DNA of 40,952 nt. Source: Verrucomicrobiota bacterium. Its GTDB lineage: Bacteria; Verrucomicrobiota; Verrucomicrobiia; Chthoniobacterales; UBA10450. The notes below the pieces were generated by a model that had not been told where the DNA came from, did no database searches, and saw only the letters and a list, made by a program, of their open reading frames with translations. The translations under genes and the position numbers were made by a program. Shown piece after piece: positions 1,937 to 40,288 of this stretch (positions within the stretch are counted from its first letter, which is position 1; each line of letters starts with the position of its first letter). The stretch spans positions 1-40,952 of the forward strand of contig QHQA01000017.1 in the NCBI GenBank assembly GCA_003219695.1, written 5' to 3'.

Positions 1937-2022
1937 AGCGCCGAGGGCGCTACTCAACTTTCAGCCTAGGGCATCGCCCCAGGATCCAATCGTCGACGGA
2001 CGCAGCGCTGAAAGCGCGATTC
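1937..2022. repeat. Left inverted REP block flanking the RAYT gene
   Basis: Contains a hairpin (AGCGCCGAGGGCGCT, 1937-1951), a 22-bp block at 1963-1984 beginning AGCCTAGGGC, and a 20-bp block at 2003-2022 beginning CAGCGCTGAAAG. The last two recur in inverted orientation on the other side of the transposase gene, at 2556-2577 (one mismatch) and 2514-2533 (perfect). This arrangement is typical of REP sequences bracketing a REP-associated tyrosine transposase. Confidence 0.85.
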
Positions 2023-2034
2023 AATGTCTCAATC

Positions 2035-2479
2035 TCAAACATACCGCTCGGCGAAATCGACACCGTGCCTGCGCAACAACTCACGGTATTCGTCCTGAAA
2101 TGTGCGAGTACGATGGTGTTCTGGTTGCGTCTTAACGTATTGCAGCACAGCCTCGAGTTGACTCGGGCTCACTGAAAACGCGCCATAGCCGCGCTGCCAG
2201 AAGAAGCCGCGATAGCGAGCCTCGAGCGCTTTGATCCATTTCGAGGAGGCTTTCTTTATCTGCTCGATGAGTTGAGCCTGAGAAAGAGTTCGCGGCAACG
2301 TAGTCACAATGTGAACGTGATCAGCAACACCGCCGACATGCACGAGTTCGGCGCCGAGATCGCGGCAGATCGTCGCCAGATACGCATTCATGCGTAGCCG
2401 GAGCCTGAATCGAGCCAAGGCTCGCGGTTCTTGGTGCTAAAACGATGTGAAGGATGACTTTGCTAAGCGATTGGGGCAT
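2035..2479 (-). pseudogene. REP-associated tyrosine transposase (RAYT, IS200/IS605-like), frameshifted
   Basis: The C-terminal 127 residues (2035-2418) carry the HUH motif HVHIV in GGVADHVHIVTTLP, followed by the helix KASSKWIK, YRGFFWQRGYGAFSVS, and YVKTQPEHHRTRTF with the catalytic-helix Tyr. A full-length relative would start with an MPQSL-like N-terminus. This is found at 2479 on the minus strand (MPQSLSKVILHIV), but in a different frame; FSTKNREPWLDSG is in a third frame. Two apparent single-base deletions (near 2440 and 2415) are needed to join the pieces. The final conserved W codon also seems to have become TGA at 2035-2037. The gene is bracketed by inverted REP blocks. It is probably inactive now, although a RAYT of this type could have mobilised the repeats in this genome. 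Confidence 0.85.
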
Positions 2480-2513
2480 AGCGTCAATCACGCATCGAAT
2501 TCGCCCCGAATGT

Positions 2514-2602
2514 GAATCGCGCTTTCAGCGCTGGCGGTTTTCTTCATTTCACCAGTCCTGGGGCGTTGCCCTAGGCTAGCAGTGAGAGCGCGCCTTTGGC
2601 GC
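2514..2602. repeat. Right inverted REP block flanking the RAYT gene
   Basis: Blocks at 2514-2533 (perfect inverted copy of 2003-2022) and 2556-2577 (inverted copy of 1963-1984 with one mismatch) are followed by a small hairpin, GCGCCTTTGGCGC, at 2590-2602. With the left block they delimit a RAYT-REP unit of about 670 bp. Its right end lies about 50 bp upstream of pafA, so it probably occupies the pafA upstream region. Confidence 0.85.
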
Positions 2603-13303: not shown

Positions 13304-13383
13304 GTGGAATTTTTGGATTGCGGATTGCGGATTTTAGACTGAACTAGGGCGAATTCATTCGGCTCGACATCCGAAGATTCTTT

Positions 13384-13425
13384 GACGGAGCCTGGCCTGA
13401 GCGTAGTCGAAGGCCTCGGAATGAC
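13384..13425. repeat. Dispersed 42-bp repeat, copy 1
   Basis: Starts GACGGAGCCTGGCCTGAGCG and ends GGAATGAC. It matches 33688-33729 at about 38 of 42 positions by eye. This copy stops 3 bp before the dedA start codon, so it occupies the ribosome-binding region of dedA. Confidence 0.85.
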
Positions 13426-13428
13426 AAT

Positions 13429-20120: not shown

Positions 20121-20137
20121 TGTGTTCGCGTTTGAGC

Positions 20138-20189
20138 TGTAGCCGCCGCCCTGTGGGCGACGCGCGCCTCGCATAGCGAGGCGGCTACA
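20138..20189. repeat. Palindromic element, TGTAGCCGC family
   Basis: TGTAGCCGCC (20138-20147) pairs with GGCGGCTACA (20180-20189), with an inner stem GCCTCGCATAGCGAGGC. It lies between the adaptor and ATPase genes. Its left half, TGTAGCCGC then GCCCTGTGGGC, is shared with the palindrome embedded in queG at 22445-22469. Confidence 0.85.
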
Positions 20190-20193
20190 GGTG

Positions 20194-21658: not shown

Positions 21659-22723
21659 TCAACAAACCTCGGCCTGCGCGTATTGGTCACGAATCCGTTG
21701 AATCGCCCACGCCGCGTGCTCCGCGATCAGCGGTTCAGGATCGGCTGAGGCGCGTTCGAGCGCGGGAATGTCGGAGATGTCGCCTGCGTTACCCAGGGCC
21801 ACACACACGTTGCGCAGAAAACCGCGGCGCTTGATCCGTTTGATCGGGGAATTTTTGAAAAGCGCGCGAAACTCTGCGTCGTTCAGCTCTAGATATTCCC
21901 GCAACGACGTCCCCATGGTTGCTCGACGGGCTGAGAAAGCCGTCTCATGGGAAACTTGAGCGAACCGGTTCCAAGGGCAGACATCCAAGCAATCATCGCA
22001 GCCGAAAATCCGATCCCCGATCAGTGGGCGAAGCTCCAGTGGAATGGAGCCTTTCAACTCGATGGTCAGATAAGAAATACAGCGGCGCGCGTCGAGCCGA
22101 TGCGGAGCTGTGATCGCGCCGGTCGGGCACGCTTTGATGCAACGCTCGCACGTGCCGCAGCGATCGGGGACTGGCTGATCCGGCGGCAATTCCAGCGTCG
22201 TCAAAACCTCGGCCAGAAAGAACCACGTCCCAAGCCGTTCATCGATTAACATGGTATTCTTGCCGTGCCACCCCGCTCCGGCCTGCGCCGCATGGTCGCG
22301 TTCCAGAATTGGTCCCGTATCGACATAACATTTTTGCTGTCCGCCGAAGTCACGAAGGAACTTGTCGATGTTCTCAAGCTTCGCCTCGACTATATCGTGA
22401 TAGTCGTCCCCCCACGCATATCGTGCGATCCGTCCCGTCTTTCCTGTAGCCGCGGCCCTGTGGGCCGCGTTCCCCTGAAAATAATTCAGCGCCAGCACAA
22501 TGATCGATCGCGTCCCTGGCAGAACCTGCTGCGGATCGCAACGCTTTTCTTCCCCGCGTCGCATATAGTGCATTTCGCCGTGCGCGCCTTCGCGCAACCA
22601 TTCGCGAAATTCGTTCGCGTGCGCGGGAGCCGTGCACGCAGCCACGCGACACGAATCGAAACCAATCTGTCGCGCAAAGGATACGAGCTGCGCCTTCAGT
22701 TCCGCTCCCGAAATCTGGGTCAT
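21659..22723 (-). CDS. queG: Epoxyqueuosine reductase
   Basis: 354 residues. The cobalamin-binding N-terminal region and catalytic Asp 135 (YVDTGPILER) are followed by two [4Fe-4S] ferredoxin-like motifs, C189-C192-C195-C199 (CGTCERCIKACPTGAI) and C242-C245-C249 (CDDCLDVCPWN), and a C-terminal HEAT-like repeat. The enzyme reduces epoxyqueuosine to queuosine in the tRNA wobble position. The segment at about residues 86-96 (AAHRAAATGKT) is encoded by a palindromic repeat inserted in frame, upstream of the conserved GRIARYAWGDDYHD. The start codon overlaps the aroK stop by 4 bp (ATGA), so the two are co-translated. No other queuosine gene is in the window. Confidence 0.95.
   Translation of the reverse strand: MTQISGAELKAQLVSFARQIGFDSCRVAACTAPAHANEFREWLREGAHGEMHYMRRGEEKRCDPQQVLPGTRSIIVLALNYFQGNAAHRAAATGKTGRIARYAWGDDYHDIVEAKLENIDKFLRDFGGQQKCYVDTGPILERDHAAQAGAGWHGKNTMLIDERLGTWFFLAEVLTTLELPPDQPVPDRCGTCERCIKACPTGAITAPHRLDARRCISYLTIELKGSIPLELRPLIGDRIFGCDDCLDVCPWNRFAQVSHETAFSARRATMGTSLREYLELNDAEFRALFKNSPIKRIKRRGFLRNVCVALGNAGDISDIPALERASADPEPLIAEHAAWAIQRIRDQYAQAEVC
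22445..22469. repeat. Palindromic element embedded in frame inside queG
   Basis: TGTAGCCGCGGCCCTGTGGG continues to a perfect stem, CGCGGCC against GGCCGCG, at 22451-22469. The same block, with one base different, is the left half of the intergenic element at 20138-20189. It encodes the Ala/Arg-rich segment before GRIARYAWGDD in QueG. Confidence 0.75.
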
Positions 22724-23280
22724 GGCGCTGTAGCCGGGATCGGCGATCCCGGTTGCGGATTAAGTCTTGCAATCTTACTCAAAATTGCCACGGCAACTTC
22801 TTCATCTGTAAGCACGGACGTATCGACGCGAAGATGCGCCATTTTCGCGTAGAGCGGCCGCCGCGCCTGTAGAATTTGCGCAAACGCTTTTCTTGGATTC
22901 TGACATTGCAACAGCGGTCGATTGCCGGAATGCAAGGCACGCTTGAAAAGCGTTTCTCGCTTCGCGTCCAGCCAAACTACCACGCCAAGGCGCTTTAAAA
23001 TGTCGATATTCTCTTCGCGCAGCACGATCCCGCCACCTGTAACAATGATTGCTTGTTCTGTTACTATCAGGCTGCGAAGTGCGTCTGTTTCCGCTTCACG
23101 GAATTTATCCTCGCCATGCTTGGCAAAAATTTGCGGAACCGGCAACCGAAGCTGCGAAACAACAATTTCGTCCGTGTCGTGTAAGGCGAGCTTTGTCCGC
23201 CGCGCAAGACAGCGACCAACGGATGATTTGCCTGCACCCGTCATCCCAATGAGAACGATCGATTTGGCGACGCTATTCAC
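22720..23280 (-). CDS. aroK: Shikimate kinase
   Basis: 186 residues. Walker A is GMTGAGKSS at 12-20, then HDTDEIV (Asp 37 for shikimate/Mg), FREAE with shikimate-binding Arg 61, TGGGIV at 81-86, and the lid region GNRPLLQ followed by RRPLYAKMAHLRVDTS. It phosphorylates shikimate at the 3-hydroxyl, the fifth step of the chorismate pathway. The frame ends in a Pro-rich tail and overlaps queG by 4 bp. It is divergent from purE, with a 76-bp shared promoter gap. No other aro gene is nearby. Confidence 0.93.
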   Translation of the reverse strand: MNSVAKSIVLIGMTGAGKSSVGRCLARRTKLALHDTDEIVVSQLRLPVPQIFAKHGEDKFREAETDALRSLIVTEQAIIVTGGGIVLREENIDILKRLGVVVWLDAKRETLFKRALHSGNRPLLQCQNPRKAFAQILQARRPLYAKMAHLRVDTSVLTDEEVAVAILSKIARLNPQPGSPIPATAP

Positions 23281-33613: not shown

Positions 33614-33729
33614 TGTCATTCTGAGCGCAGCGAAGCGGAGTCGAAGAATCCCAGTGAACAGTCCTGAGCAATGCCACGGGATCCCTCGACGGAGCCTGCC
33701 CTGAGCGAAGTCGAAGGGCTCGGGATGAC
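33614..33729. repeat. Dispersed repeat between nuoB and nuoC, copy 2 of the 42-bp element
   Basis: The block starts GTCATTCTGAGCGCAGCGAA and ends GGGCTCGGGATGAC, so its outer ends are imperfect inverted repeats. The right 42 bp (33688-33729) match 13384-13425 at about 38 positions. It separates nuoC from nuoB. Confidence 0.85.
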
Positions 33730-33739
33730 GATGTACCCA

Positions 33740-38722: not shown

Positions 38723-40288
38723 CTACAACCGCAGTCCCTTTGGAATCAGAACGCGATCGAGCAGATCGAAAAACCATTGTGCCAGCAGTGCCAGGACGGC
38801 CGCCGGAATAGCGCCTTGCAAGATTGTCACGTGATCGTTCAAGTTGAGGCCGCTCAAAATCGGTTCGCCCAGACCCCCGGCGCCGATCAATGCCGCCAGT
38901 GTGGCCGTGCCGATGTTGATCACCGCGCTGGTTTTGATGCCCGACAAAATTGAGCGCGACGCCATCGGCAGATAAATTTCCACGAGTCGCGTGATCGGGC
39001 TGAGCCCCAATGCAATGGCGGATTCGCGTAATGGTCGAGGGATATCCTGCAAACCGCTTGCGGTGTTGCGCACGATTGGCAGCAAGCCGTAGAGGAAAAG
39101 TGCGGCGATGGCGGTGCGGGCGCTGATTCCGAAAAATGGAAGAGGCACAAGCAAGGCGAGCAAAGCGAGCGATGGAATTGTTTGCACTATGCCGACAAAA
39201 CCAAGAATGCCGTGACCAATCACTCCGCCGCGGCTGGCAACGATGCCAAGCGGAATCCCGAAGATCACCGATAGAAGCAGCGAAAAGCCAGCCAGCTGAA
39301 GATGGCGAAGCGTCCAGCGCGCAAGCTTGTGCGGAAAGGATTCGCCAAACTTCTGGTAGGGACGCCGCACTGCGGCGTCCGGACGGCGCAGCGCGCCGTC
39401 CCTACCTTCGAAATACAGGTTTGCTGCTCGCGTGTAATTTTTGGTGCGCTCCGCTTCTGCATTGAGTTGAATCATCCGCTTTTCATCCAGCGTTCCTTCC
39501 AAGCGACGCAATGCAGCAATCGCATCCGCGCGCATGGACGATCGGAACAAGAAGACCGCCTCATACTTTGGAAAGAAGTGAAGATCGTCTTCGAGCGCGA
39601 TCAGATCATTCTGCTCGATCTTTGCGTCTGTCGAGTAGGCGTCCTTAACGTCAATCGATCCATTGGCGAGCGCGCTGTAACCCAGCGCGTGATCGATGCC
39701 GATGACATTTTGCTGTGGAAGCGCATACCGCTCGCGCAATGGTCGCCAGCCATCCTGCCTATCTAGGAATTCATGCGTGAGCCCGACCTTGAACTCGGGG
39801 TGTTTTCGCAGATCGCTGATGGTGCGCACGCCGAGTCGTTGCGCTTCGCTGCGTCGCATCACCAACGCATAGGTATTGTTGAAGCCGAGCGGGTTCGTCA
39901 TGCCCACGTCAAGTTTCACCAGCGCATTGCGAATTTCGTCGAGCGATAATTCGTGATCTGTTTTAAAAATTTCTTGCGTGATGGTTCCCGTGTATTCGGG
40001 GTAGGCGTCGATTTGTCCGCCGCGCAGCGCTTGCCAGAGAATGATGGTACCGCCCATGCCTTCGCGATGTTCAGCGGGAATTCCGGCCTCGGTTAGTGTG
40101 CGTTTGGCAATTTCTCCGAGCACATACGATTCAGTGAACTTCTTCGAGCCGATGATGACGGGATTTGCTGATGCGCATGTGACCACGACAAAAAGAAGCG
40201 CGGGAACCAAGGAGCGGCGGCTTCCCAGCCGCCGAAGACCCGCGGCGGTTAGGAAACCGCCTCTCCTTGATTGGCGATGCAATTTCAT
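38723..40288 (-). CDS. Osmoprotectant (betaine/choline) ABC transporter, fused substrate-binding protein and permease
   Basis: 521 residues. A signal peptide region is followed by an OpuAC-like binding domain (about 43-292; IIGSKKFTESYVLGEI, MGGTIILWQALRGGQIDAYP, YALPQQNVIGIDHALGYSAL), a linker, and a binding-protein-dependent permease (about 325-521). The permease part includes IVQTIPSLALLALLVPLPFF and the EAA-type loop RESAIALGLSPITRLVEIYL. The SBP-first fusion order is opposite to BusAB of Lactococcus. Two palindromic repeats are translated: residues about 8-27 (GFLTAAGLRRLGSR) before the hydrophobic signal core, and about 295-311 (RDGALRRPDAAVRRP) in the linker. The start at 40288 overlaps the ATPase stop by 4 bp. 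It imports compatible solutes such as glycine betaine; ligand inferred from family. Confidence 0.92.
   Translation of the reverse strand: MKLHRQSRRGGFLTAAGLRRLGSRRSLVPALLFVVVTCASANPVIIGSKKFTESYVLGEIAKRTLTEAGIPAEHREGMGGTIILWQALRGGQIDAYPEYTGTITQEIFKTDHELSLDEIRNALVKLDVGMTNPLGFNNTYALVMRRSEAQRLGVRTISDLRKHPEFKVGLTHEFLDRQDGWRPLRERYALPQQNVIGIDHALGYSALANGSIDVKDAYSTDAKIEQNDLIALEDDLHFFPKYEAVFLFRSSMRADAIAALRRLEGTLDEKRMIQLNAEAERTKNYTRAANLYFEGRDGALRRPDAAVRRPYQKFGESFPHKLARWTLRHLQLAGFSLLLSVIFGIPLGIVASRGGVIGHGILGFVGIVQTIPSLALLALLVPLPFFGISARTAIAALFLYGLLPIVRNTASGLQDIPRPLRESAIALGLSPITRLVEIYLPMASRSILSGIKTSAVINIGTATLAALIGAGGLGEPILSGLNLNDHVTILQGAIPAAVLALLAQWFFDLLDRVLIPKGLRL
39355..39406. repeat. 52-bp palindromic element in frame inside the transporter linker
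   Basis: Begins GGTAGGGACGCCGCACTGCG and ends GCGCCGTCCCTACC. The intergenic copy at 1368-1419 has the same length, ends and CCGGAC centre. It encodes residues about 295-311, exactly between the binding and permease domains. Confidence 0.88.
40211..40266. repeat. 56-bp palindromic element in frame in the transporter signal-peptide region
   Basis: The left arm, starting GGAGCGGCGGCTTCCCAGCC, pairs imperfectly (about five mismatches) with the right arm ending AGGAAACCGCCTCTCC. It encodes about residues 8-27, placing a Gly/Arg-rich stretch ahead of the hydrophobic core (SLVPALLFVVVTCASA). Confidence 0.85.

What the first reader, a model, noticed from the sequence alone, without database searches (positions are those of the whole stretch)
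22445..22469. Palindrome shared between queG and an intergenic element
A block in queG (TGTAGCCGC, then GCCCTGTGGGC) is nearly identical to the left half of the element at 20138-20189. It encodes an Ala/Arg-rich stretch just before the conserved GRIARYAWGDDYHD segment, at a place where QueG proteins vary in length. This is a third in-frame coding insertion, from yet another repeat family.
Basis: partly seen in the sequence, partly recalled or inferred. Interest (0 to 1): 0.55.

Follow-up and report, generated by a model that had tools for sequence, protein, structure and literature searches.

The report
Mobile palindrome translated inside queG
A 26-base palindrome of a mobile type sits in the middle of a tRNA-modification gene of a probable soil bacterium and is translated as part of a floppy loop of the enzyme, and in related bacteria different palindromes of the same general class occupy that same spot, which shows how small mobile repeats can live inside working genes.

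Summary
Window 22444-22469 is a perfect GTAG-type REP (CT-GTAG-C, 8-bp stem, 3-nt loop) of a dispersed family: 64 places in this genome at <=3 mismatches, 1 in the reversed control. It is translated as residues 86-93 of a full-length QueG. The 20137-20190 element is an inverted dimer of the same family. A RAYT transposase gene flanked by these REPs exists in a relative, G034; no close homologue was found in this genome. The insertion reading is partly right: the loop is predicted disordered and varies in length, but this QueG's loop is not longer than usual (14 residues, median 13). The stronger result: in related Verrucomicrobia the same QueG loop carries REPs of other families, with 10 intact hairpins in 3,930 nt of loop against 3 in 75,885 nt of the rest, and 19 of 76 loops match REPs from RAYT flanks. 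One miaA site and three purL sites also hold different REP families in different species. Intragenic REPs are known; several families at the same coding loops is the extension. Repeated insertion or REP-for-REP exchange is unsettled.

The parts
22444..22469 (+). GTAG-type REP: CT (22444-22445), GTAG (22446-22449), C, 8-bp stem 22451-22458 / 22462-22469 with loop TGT; oriented antisense to queG, so that its stop-free strand is translated
   Evidence: RNA fold of the queG strand (22436-22484) -21.2 kcal/mol, z -4.8, 1 of 200 shuffles folds as well
21659..22723 (-). queG, tRNA epoxyqueuosine(34) reductase, 354 aa; the REP encodes residues 86-93 (AAHRAAAT)
   Evidence: PDB relatives 5d08 and 5d6s
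22436..22474 (-). variable linker of QueG (residues 84-96) between the strand at residues 73-80 and the helix at 108-124; residues 84-93 are one of two segments with pLDDT below 50
20137..20162 (+). left REP of the same family, first half of an inverted dimer (BIME-like)
20165..20190 (-). right REP of the same family, second half of the dimer, just 3' of the HlyD-type gene; the ABC-transporter frame listed from 20174 overlaps it, but a later ATG is the likelier start (inference)
22730..22752 (+). REP of a different family (GTAGCCGGGATCGGCGATCCCGG) at the aroK 3' end, upstream of queG; the same sequence type flanks a RAYT at G000:C106

Best explanation
The block is one copy of a GTAG-type REP, a short palindrome of the class thought to be copied by RAYT (Y1/HUH) transposases. 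It lies in frame in a disordered linker of QueG. Steps shown here: the palindrome is a dispersed family with covarying stems and inverted dimers; a RAYT gene flanked by this REP family exists in a relative; the queG copy is translated as part of a full-length conserved enzyme; it falls in a length-variable linker that is among the least ordered parts of the model; in relatives the same linker holds REPs of other families. Steps inferred: single-stranded REP DNA was transferred into queG by a RAYT; it survived because the linker tolerates extra or exchanged residues and because only one of the six reading frames of this REP contains a stop (the TAG of GTAG), the antisense orientation being free of stops. 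The encoded peptide probably has no function of its own. Over time resident REPs decay, are lost or are overwritten by REPs of other RAYT families, so the linker acts as a recurrent landing site.
For: Dispersed family with paired stem changes; C precedes TGTAG in 34 of 45 copies examined, giving CT-GTAG. RAYT with family-A REP dimers on both sides in G034, the downstream one part-degenerate, and a 71%-identical homologue in G020 with a family-A dimer on one side. QueG loop enrichment: 10 GTAG/GTGG hairpins (stem >=7) in 3,930 nt of loop, in 10 of 76 genes, against 3 in 75,885 nt outside; with stem >=6, 12 against 9. Against a library of 73 hairpins taken only from the neighbourhood of RAYT genes, 19 of 76 loops score above 14, the 99th percentile of 227 control segments (control maximum 15), and 0 of 76 reversed loops do. 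A second family (GTAGNRGCGSCCGTGYCGGSCGC) occurs 28, 13, 8 and 14 times in the genomes of L121, L145, L150 and L151, controls 0. Sister genes on the tree, L043 and L049, have similar flanks but different loop sequence. pLDDT below 50 at residues 84-93. miaA: one site with family-A REPs in L241-L245 and GTAGCCGG-type REPs in L247, L251, L253, L254, no hairpin in the 12 more distant rows. purL: three sites, each with at least two REP types; site 2 has rows without insert inside and outside the genus.
Against: The window's own loop is not longer than the median, so insertion rather than substitution is not shown for this gene. No close homologue of the cognate RAYT was found in this genome (93% complete): the best are 47% (C106, one in-frame TAA, flanked by another REP family) and 46% (C58, with one family-A variant about 115 bp upstream and none seen downstream) identical. 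Two of the 19 loops (L055, L056) only equal the control maximum. Family V is rare in some genomes whose loop fits it or lies near it: 2 places in L125's genome. The identity of the REP between the window and L043 (28-nt run) is not exceptional in this gene, since a 29-nt identical run occurs elsewhere, and L043/L049 share 244 nt, so recombination between lineages blurs the tree. Transposition itself was not observed.
Confidence: 0.85

Rival explanations
1. One ancestral REP insertion, inherited vertically and diverged by point mutation; no recurrent occupation.
For: Many genus members have a loop of similar length ending in GC(G/C/T)-ACA-GG or near it; some neighbours do share related copies (L058/L063; L142/L155).
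Against: Occupants fall in families dispersed in genomes; the fewest label changes on the tree are 16 over all states (A 4, V 7, F 1, Q 3, P 2 taken singly), decay to 'other' included; L043/L049 differ in the loop with similar flanks; purL site 2 has members without insert within the genus.
Confidence: 0.1
2. The REP in queG is kept for a function, for example an mRNA hairpin that tunes translation or decay, or a peptide useful to QueG.
For: Stable hairpin in the queG strand, -21.2 kcal/mol, z -4.8, 1 of 200 shuffles as stable; retained in a conserved gene.
Against: 66 of 76 genes lack an intact hairpin there, the families and peptides differ, and the segment is predicted disordered.
Confidence: 0.08
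3. Chance: an Ala/Arg-rich linker in a GC-rich gene resembles the repeat.
For: GC-rich coding DNA can make short palindromes; 3 to 9 hairpins occur elsewhere in the QueG genes.
Against: Zero matches in 100 shuffles, 64 genomic places against 1 control, 0 of 76 reversed loops above threshold.
Confidence: 0.01
4. Assembly or binning artefact joining a repeat into queG.
For: The window's genome and the other genus genomes used are drafts in about 150 or more contigs, and the titles are mostly of metagenome assemblies.
Against: The frame is open through the REP, flanks match relatives, and assemblies from different projects by title (AV isolates, Centralia, palsa, LS_FP) show REPs at the same site.
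Confidence: 0.02

Closest known systems
GTAG REPs / BIMEs with RAYT (TnpA_REP) genes, group 3-like (Stenotrophomonas maltophilia type)
   Same: GTAG head, 8-bp perfect stem with 3-nt loop, CT next to the head, inverted dimers, RAYT flanked by REPs in a relative (the S. maltophilia REP architecture and CT cleavage come from passages of PMC8266576; RAYTs flanked by two inverted REPs from passages of PMC2817692)
   Different: Another phylum; the cognate RAYT was not found in the window's own genome; the group of this RAYT was not determined
Intragenic GTAG REPs of Opitutus terrae and others (Di Nocera et al. 2013, PMC3733652; section 15 read, otherwise passages)
   Same: REPs translated in frame inside genes of a verrucomicrobium; the paper also notes different REPs at about the same site of recB in two Xanthomonas species
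   Different: Here one QueG linker holds several families across many species, and one miaA and three purL sites hold at least two each; queG and queuosine are not mentioned in the main text, its supplementary list was not open to me
Rickettsia palindromic elements (RPE)
   Same: Palindromic repeats inserted in frame in unrelated metabolic genes (passages of PMC10969869)
   Different: RPEs are put at about 150 bp in that review, and RPE-4 and RPE-6 are classed as CGTC REPs in PMC3733652; here the units are about 26 bp, or dimers of them, with a GTAG head

Membership tests
GTAG-type REP | GT(A/G)G tetranucleotide at one end of a short palindrome | tested here: met
   GTAG at 22446-22449, perfect 8-bp stem
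GTAG-type REP | Multi-copy, dispersed, stem maintained by compensatory changes | tested here: met
   64 places, control 1; stems such as TTCG/CGAA, CTCG/CGAG, GTCT/AGAC, GGCC/GGCC, CGCC/GGCG, read by eye
GTAG-type REP | Found as inverted dimers (BIME/REPIN) | tested here: met
   20137-20190 and other pairs; the queG copy is a single REP
GTAG-type REP | Mostly extragenic | tested here: inconclusive
   The queG copy is intragenic; 10 candidate frames from 8 other loci were scanned and in 5 loci the REP lies within or between domains of one conserved gene; not all copies, nor all frames listed, were classified
RAYT-mobilised element (REPtron) | A RAYT gene flanked by inverted REPs of the same family | tested here: met
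   Met in G034 (L194); one-sided in G020 (L212)
RAYT-mobilised element (REPtron) | Cognate RAYT in the same genome | tested here: inconclusive
   Best homologues in G000 are 46-47% identical; C58 has one family-A variant upstream only; assembly 93% complete
RAYT-mobilised element (REPtron) | Cleavage and strand transfer of the REP by the RAYT | not testable with these tools
   Needs biochemistry
Rickettsia palindromic element | Membership by sequence in an RPE family | not tested
   The GTAG head and short unit argue against it; no sequence comparison was made

The most novel reading that the evidence does not exclude
Some coding loops of core enzymes (QueG, MiaA, PurL) in this group are REP docking sites in which resident REPs are exchanged for REPs of other RAYT families. 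The exchange would use the shared CT-GTAG end as the joint, so the reading frame and the GTAG-side junction stay fixed while the hairpin body and encoded peptide change. Hints: in queG the junction GCT-ACA-GGN followed by the K/R codon of (K/R)IARY is shared by members of families A (L043, L051), V (L054, L058) and, by peptide, F (L120) and further V (L145, L151), though the window's own copy has three more residues there; in miaA the intact REPs of both families end in ATG-V(F), except those of L243 and L245; in purL site 3 A- and V-type occupants both abut ALFNE/VLFNE. The junctions were read by eye and not tested statistically.
Probability: 0.3. Interest if true: 0.7.

Novelty: new variant of a known kind. 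Interest (0 to 1): 0.5.

Why it matters
It shows very small mobile repeats using protein-coding loops as residences, with several families at one and the same site in a group of related bacteria. That gives natural replicate experiments on which enzyme loops tolerate inserted peptides, and a series of occupied and unoccupied sites from which the little-known movement of REPs (insertion or exchange) could be worked out.

Tried and rejected
Chance resemblance: rejected by shuffles, reversed patterns and control segments. Identity of the REP between the window and L043 as proof of independent insertion: dropped, because a 29-nt identical run elsewhere in the gene is just as long, although fourfold-degenerate sites of shared residues are only 0.40 identical (n = 99). 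A target-site consensus: beyond the C next to TGTAG the strongest position is C at -14 (21 of 45) and then A at -3 and G at -2 (19 of 45 each), which I did not test and do not take as a target. Length gain in the window's own QueG: not found. Joint search of all loops in 28 genomes: only 13 candidates per genome were scored and about 150 rows listed, so one search gives lower bounds only. A close cognate RAYT in the window's genome: not found.

Rows dropped before counts: of 110 QueG loci, 8 (L161, L164, L165, L166, L167, L169, L172, L180) did not fit the motif used, 102 gave 76 non-redundant genes, and L179 was left out of the tree. QueG search: 47 of 58 genomes had a match; miaA 32 of 39; purL 34 of 39; 30 loci of each of the last two were examined, one miaA locus (L270) without the site. 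RAYT flanks: the loci only, that is 14 loci of G000 and 60 of relatives, not every RAYT listed. Family labels for the tree were set by me; 52 of 75 rows are 'other', which includes decayed repeats, and L053 was labelled V on a weak score (16).

Full report
WHAT IS THERE. The finding's two blocks are real. TGTAGCCGCNGCCCTGTGGGC is found at 20138 and 22445 and nowhere else in the window with up to 3 mismatches; none of 100 dinucleotide shuffles has one. The queG block is a complete stem-loop: CT-GTAG-C, CGCGGCCC, TGT, GGGCCGCG, at 22444-22469. The 20137-20190 element is an inverted pair of the same kind of unit. In the whole genome (G000, 224 contigs, 93% complete) there are 26 places at <=2 mismatches of the first pattern with 0 in the reversed control, and 64 places at <=3 mismatches of the generalised stem-loop with 1 in the control (a palindrome can be counted on both strands). 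The stems differ between copies by paired changes, and many copies form inverted pairs with starts about 27-60 bp apart. The window as a whole has 12 GTAG/GTGG hairpins (stem >=7) against a mean of 0.9 and a maximum of 3 in 20 Markov shuffles.

IDENTITY. GTAG head, short palindrome, dispersal and inverted dimers are the marks of GTAG REPs. C precedes TGTAG in 34 of 45 copies, so most read CT-GTAG. TnpA_REP proteins studied in vitro cut at CT (one also at CA) beside the REP, and the S. maltophilia REP is an 8-bp perfect palindrome with a 3-nt loop (passages of PMC8266576). The genome has 14 Y1_Tnp matches, 12 over the Pfam cut-off; the RAYT-type genes of L035 and L037 are flanked by matching inverted GTAG hairpins, L038 has them on both sides and L039 on one. 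For the queG family the fitting RAYT was found in the relative G034: L194 has a family-A REP dimer upstream and another, part-degenerate, downstream. A 71% identical RAYT in G020, with one in-frame TGA, has a family-A dimer on one side. In G000 itself the best homologues are 47% identical (C106, one in-frame TAA, with another REP family) and 46% (C58, one family-A variant about 115 bp upstream, none seen downstream).

QUEG. The 354-aa product is QueG (TIGR00276, 403.6 bits), with solved relatives 5d08 and 5d6s. The REP's stop-free strand is translated as A86-T93 (AAHRAAAT). In an AlphaFold2 model from 49 sequences (mean pLDDT 82.5) residues 84-93 are one of two segments below pLDDT 50, between a strand (73-80) and a helix (108-124). 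Reading the REP in six frames by hand, five are open; only the TAG of GTAG stops one.

THE SAME LOOP IN RELATIVES. QueG was found in 47 of 58 genomes searched, and 80 further loci came from the GTDB collection (a capped list), titled as Verrucomicrobia or their genera except L159 (titled Terriglobus), two of them Candidatus Udaeobacter. After removing duplicates and eight loci that did not fit the motif, 76 genes were compared. The loop runs from 9 to 38 residues; the ten genes with an intact GTAG/GTGG hairpin have a median of 24, the other 66 of 13; the window's own is 14. Intact hairpins (stem >=7) number 10 in 3,930 nt of loop and 3 in 75,885 nt of the rest; with stem >=6, 12 and 9. They belong to different types: A (window, L043), V = GTAGNRGCGSCCGTGYCGG-type (L121, L125, L145, L150, L151), F = GTAGCGGCGGTCTGCGACCGCCG (L120), Q = GTGGCATCGGC.TCC.GCCGATG (L055, L128). 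Family V occurs 28, 13, 8 and 14 times in the genomes of L121, L145, L150 and L151, but only 2 times in that of L125, 5 in L128's, 1 in L120's and 1 in L148's; controls 0. With 73 hairpins taken only from the neighbourhood of RAYT genes as a library, 19 of 76 loops score above the 99th percentile (14) of 227 same-length segments from elsewhere in the genes, whose maximum is 15; two of the 19 (L055, L056) score 15; 0 of 76 reversed loops pass. A joint search of 28 loops against 28 genomes found further copies outside queG of several loops, with only 13 candidates scored per genome.

INDEPENDENCE. On a tree of 75 QueG proteins without the loop the fewest changes of occupant are A 4, V 7, F 1, Q 3, P 2 taken singly, and 16 for all states together; losses and decay are included and the labels are mine. 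L043 and L049 are sisters with high support (100/96), and their flanks are alike while the loop differs. Against a simple reading: L043/L049 share a 244-nt identical run, so lineages may recombine, and the REP identity of the window and L043 (28 nt) is matched by a 29-nt run elsewhere.

OTHER GENES. Ten candidate frames from eight family-A loci of G000 were scanned; in five loci the REP lies within or between domains of PurL, MiaA, RNase R, a protein kinase and a DNA methylase; a sixth (L021) lies between two domains that may be two genes, L012 is N-terminal to its domain and L091 has no domain. In miaA (30 loci; 32 of 39 genomes had a match) one site carries family-A hairpins in L241-L245 and GTAGCCGG-type hairpins in L247, L251, L253 and L254; L256 has a family-A hairpin where its alignment is cut; L257 has a much shorter loop; L246, L248-L250, L252 and L255 have a loop without an intact hairpin; the 12 more distant rows L258-L269 have no hairpin. 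In purL (30 loci; 34 of 39 genomes) site 1 has A (L272; L271) and a GTAGCCGCGATCG-type hairpin (L273); site 2 has F (L274) and GTAGCCGG-type (L277, L284, L285), a GIGFQP peptide in L281, and no insert in L272, L273, L278, L280, L282, L286, L287; of the 12 distant rows L289-L300 seven also lack it and five (L294, L296-L299) have a few extra residues; site 3 has A (L273, L276) and V-like (L284, L285). Four of the 17 purL hairpins are not at these sites (L271, L283, and one each in L284 and L285).

HOW IT MOST LIKELY WORKS. A RAYT transfers single-stranded REP DNA into many places; in essential or useful genes only insertions in permissive linkers, in frame and without a stop, are kept. Such linkers are then hit, or their resident REPs exchanged, again. 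Insertion and selection by tolerance suffice; exchange at the GTAG end is possible and is the bolder reading. These steps are inferred.

PRIOR WORK. Intragenic GTAG REPs are described, with Opitutus terrae (Verrucomicrobia) having the most, and different REPs at about the same recB site in two Xanthomonas species are noted (PMC3733652, section 15 and passages). RPEs are the well-known in-frame case (PMC10969869, passages). RAYTs are described as flanked by two inverted REPs (PMC2817692, passages). Searches whose listings showed me no report of REPs in queG or of many-family occupation of one coding site: (open-licence PMC papers only; only the listed top papers were seen, supplementary files were not open).

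VERDICT. A real, new instance of a known kind of thing (an intragenic REP), in a wider pattern (same coding loops, several REP families, several species) that goes beyond what I found in print.

Noticed in passing
window 39356-39405: Inverted REP dimer of another family (GTAGGGACG...) translated in the linker between the OpuAC and permease domains of a 555-aa open frame; related copy at 1367-1420.
   Followed up: partly
window 22730-22752: REP of the GTAGCCGGGATCGG type within the last codons of aroK just upstream of queG; the same type flanks a RAYT at G000:C106.
   Followed up: partly
window 2003-2533: A Y1_Tnp (RAYT-like) gene at 2125-2403 (-) lies between perfect 21-nt inverted repeats 2003-2023 and 2513-2533.
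   Followed up: no
G000:C84:11948, G000:C82:10024, G008:C205:12662 and others: Y1_Tnp matches within very long open frames (about 850-1620 aa) in several genomes.
   Followed up: no
L043 and L049 (QueG genes of G034 and G026): 244-nt identical run at the 5' end of the open frame although the rest differs, suggesting recombination between species.
   Followed up: no
L047 (G032 QueG loop); L246, L249 (miaA): A second type of repeat (SPASAK / SASAKATADKP-like peptide) seems nested inside a REP-like loop in queG and miaA.
   Followed up: no
window 13376-13428 and 33680-33732: Two 53-nt copies, 85% alike, of another repeat (CCTGAGCG.AGTCGAAGG core).
   Followed up: no
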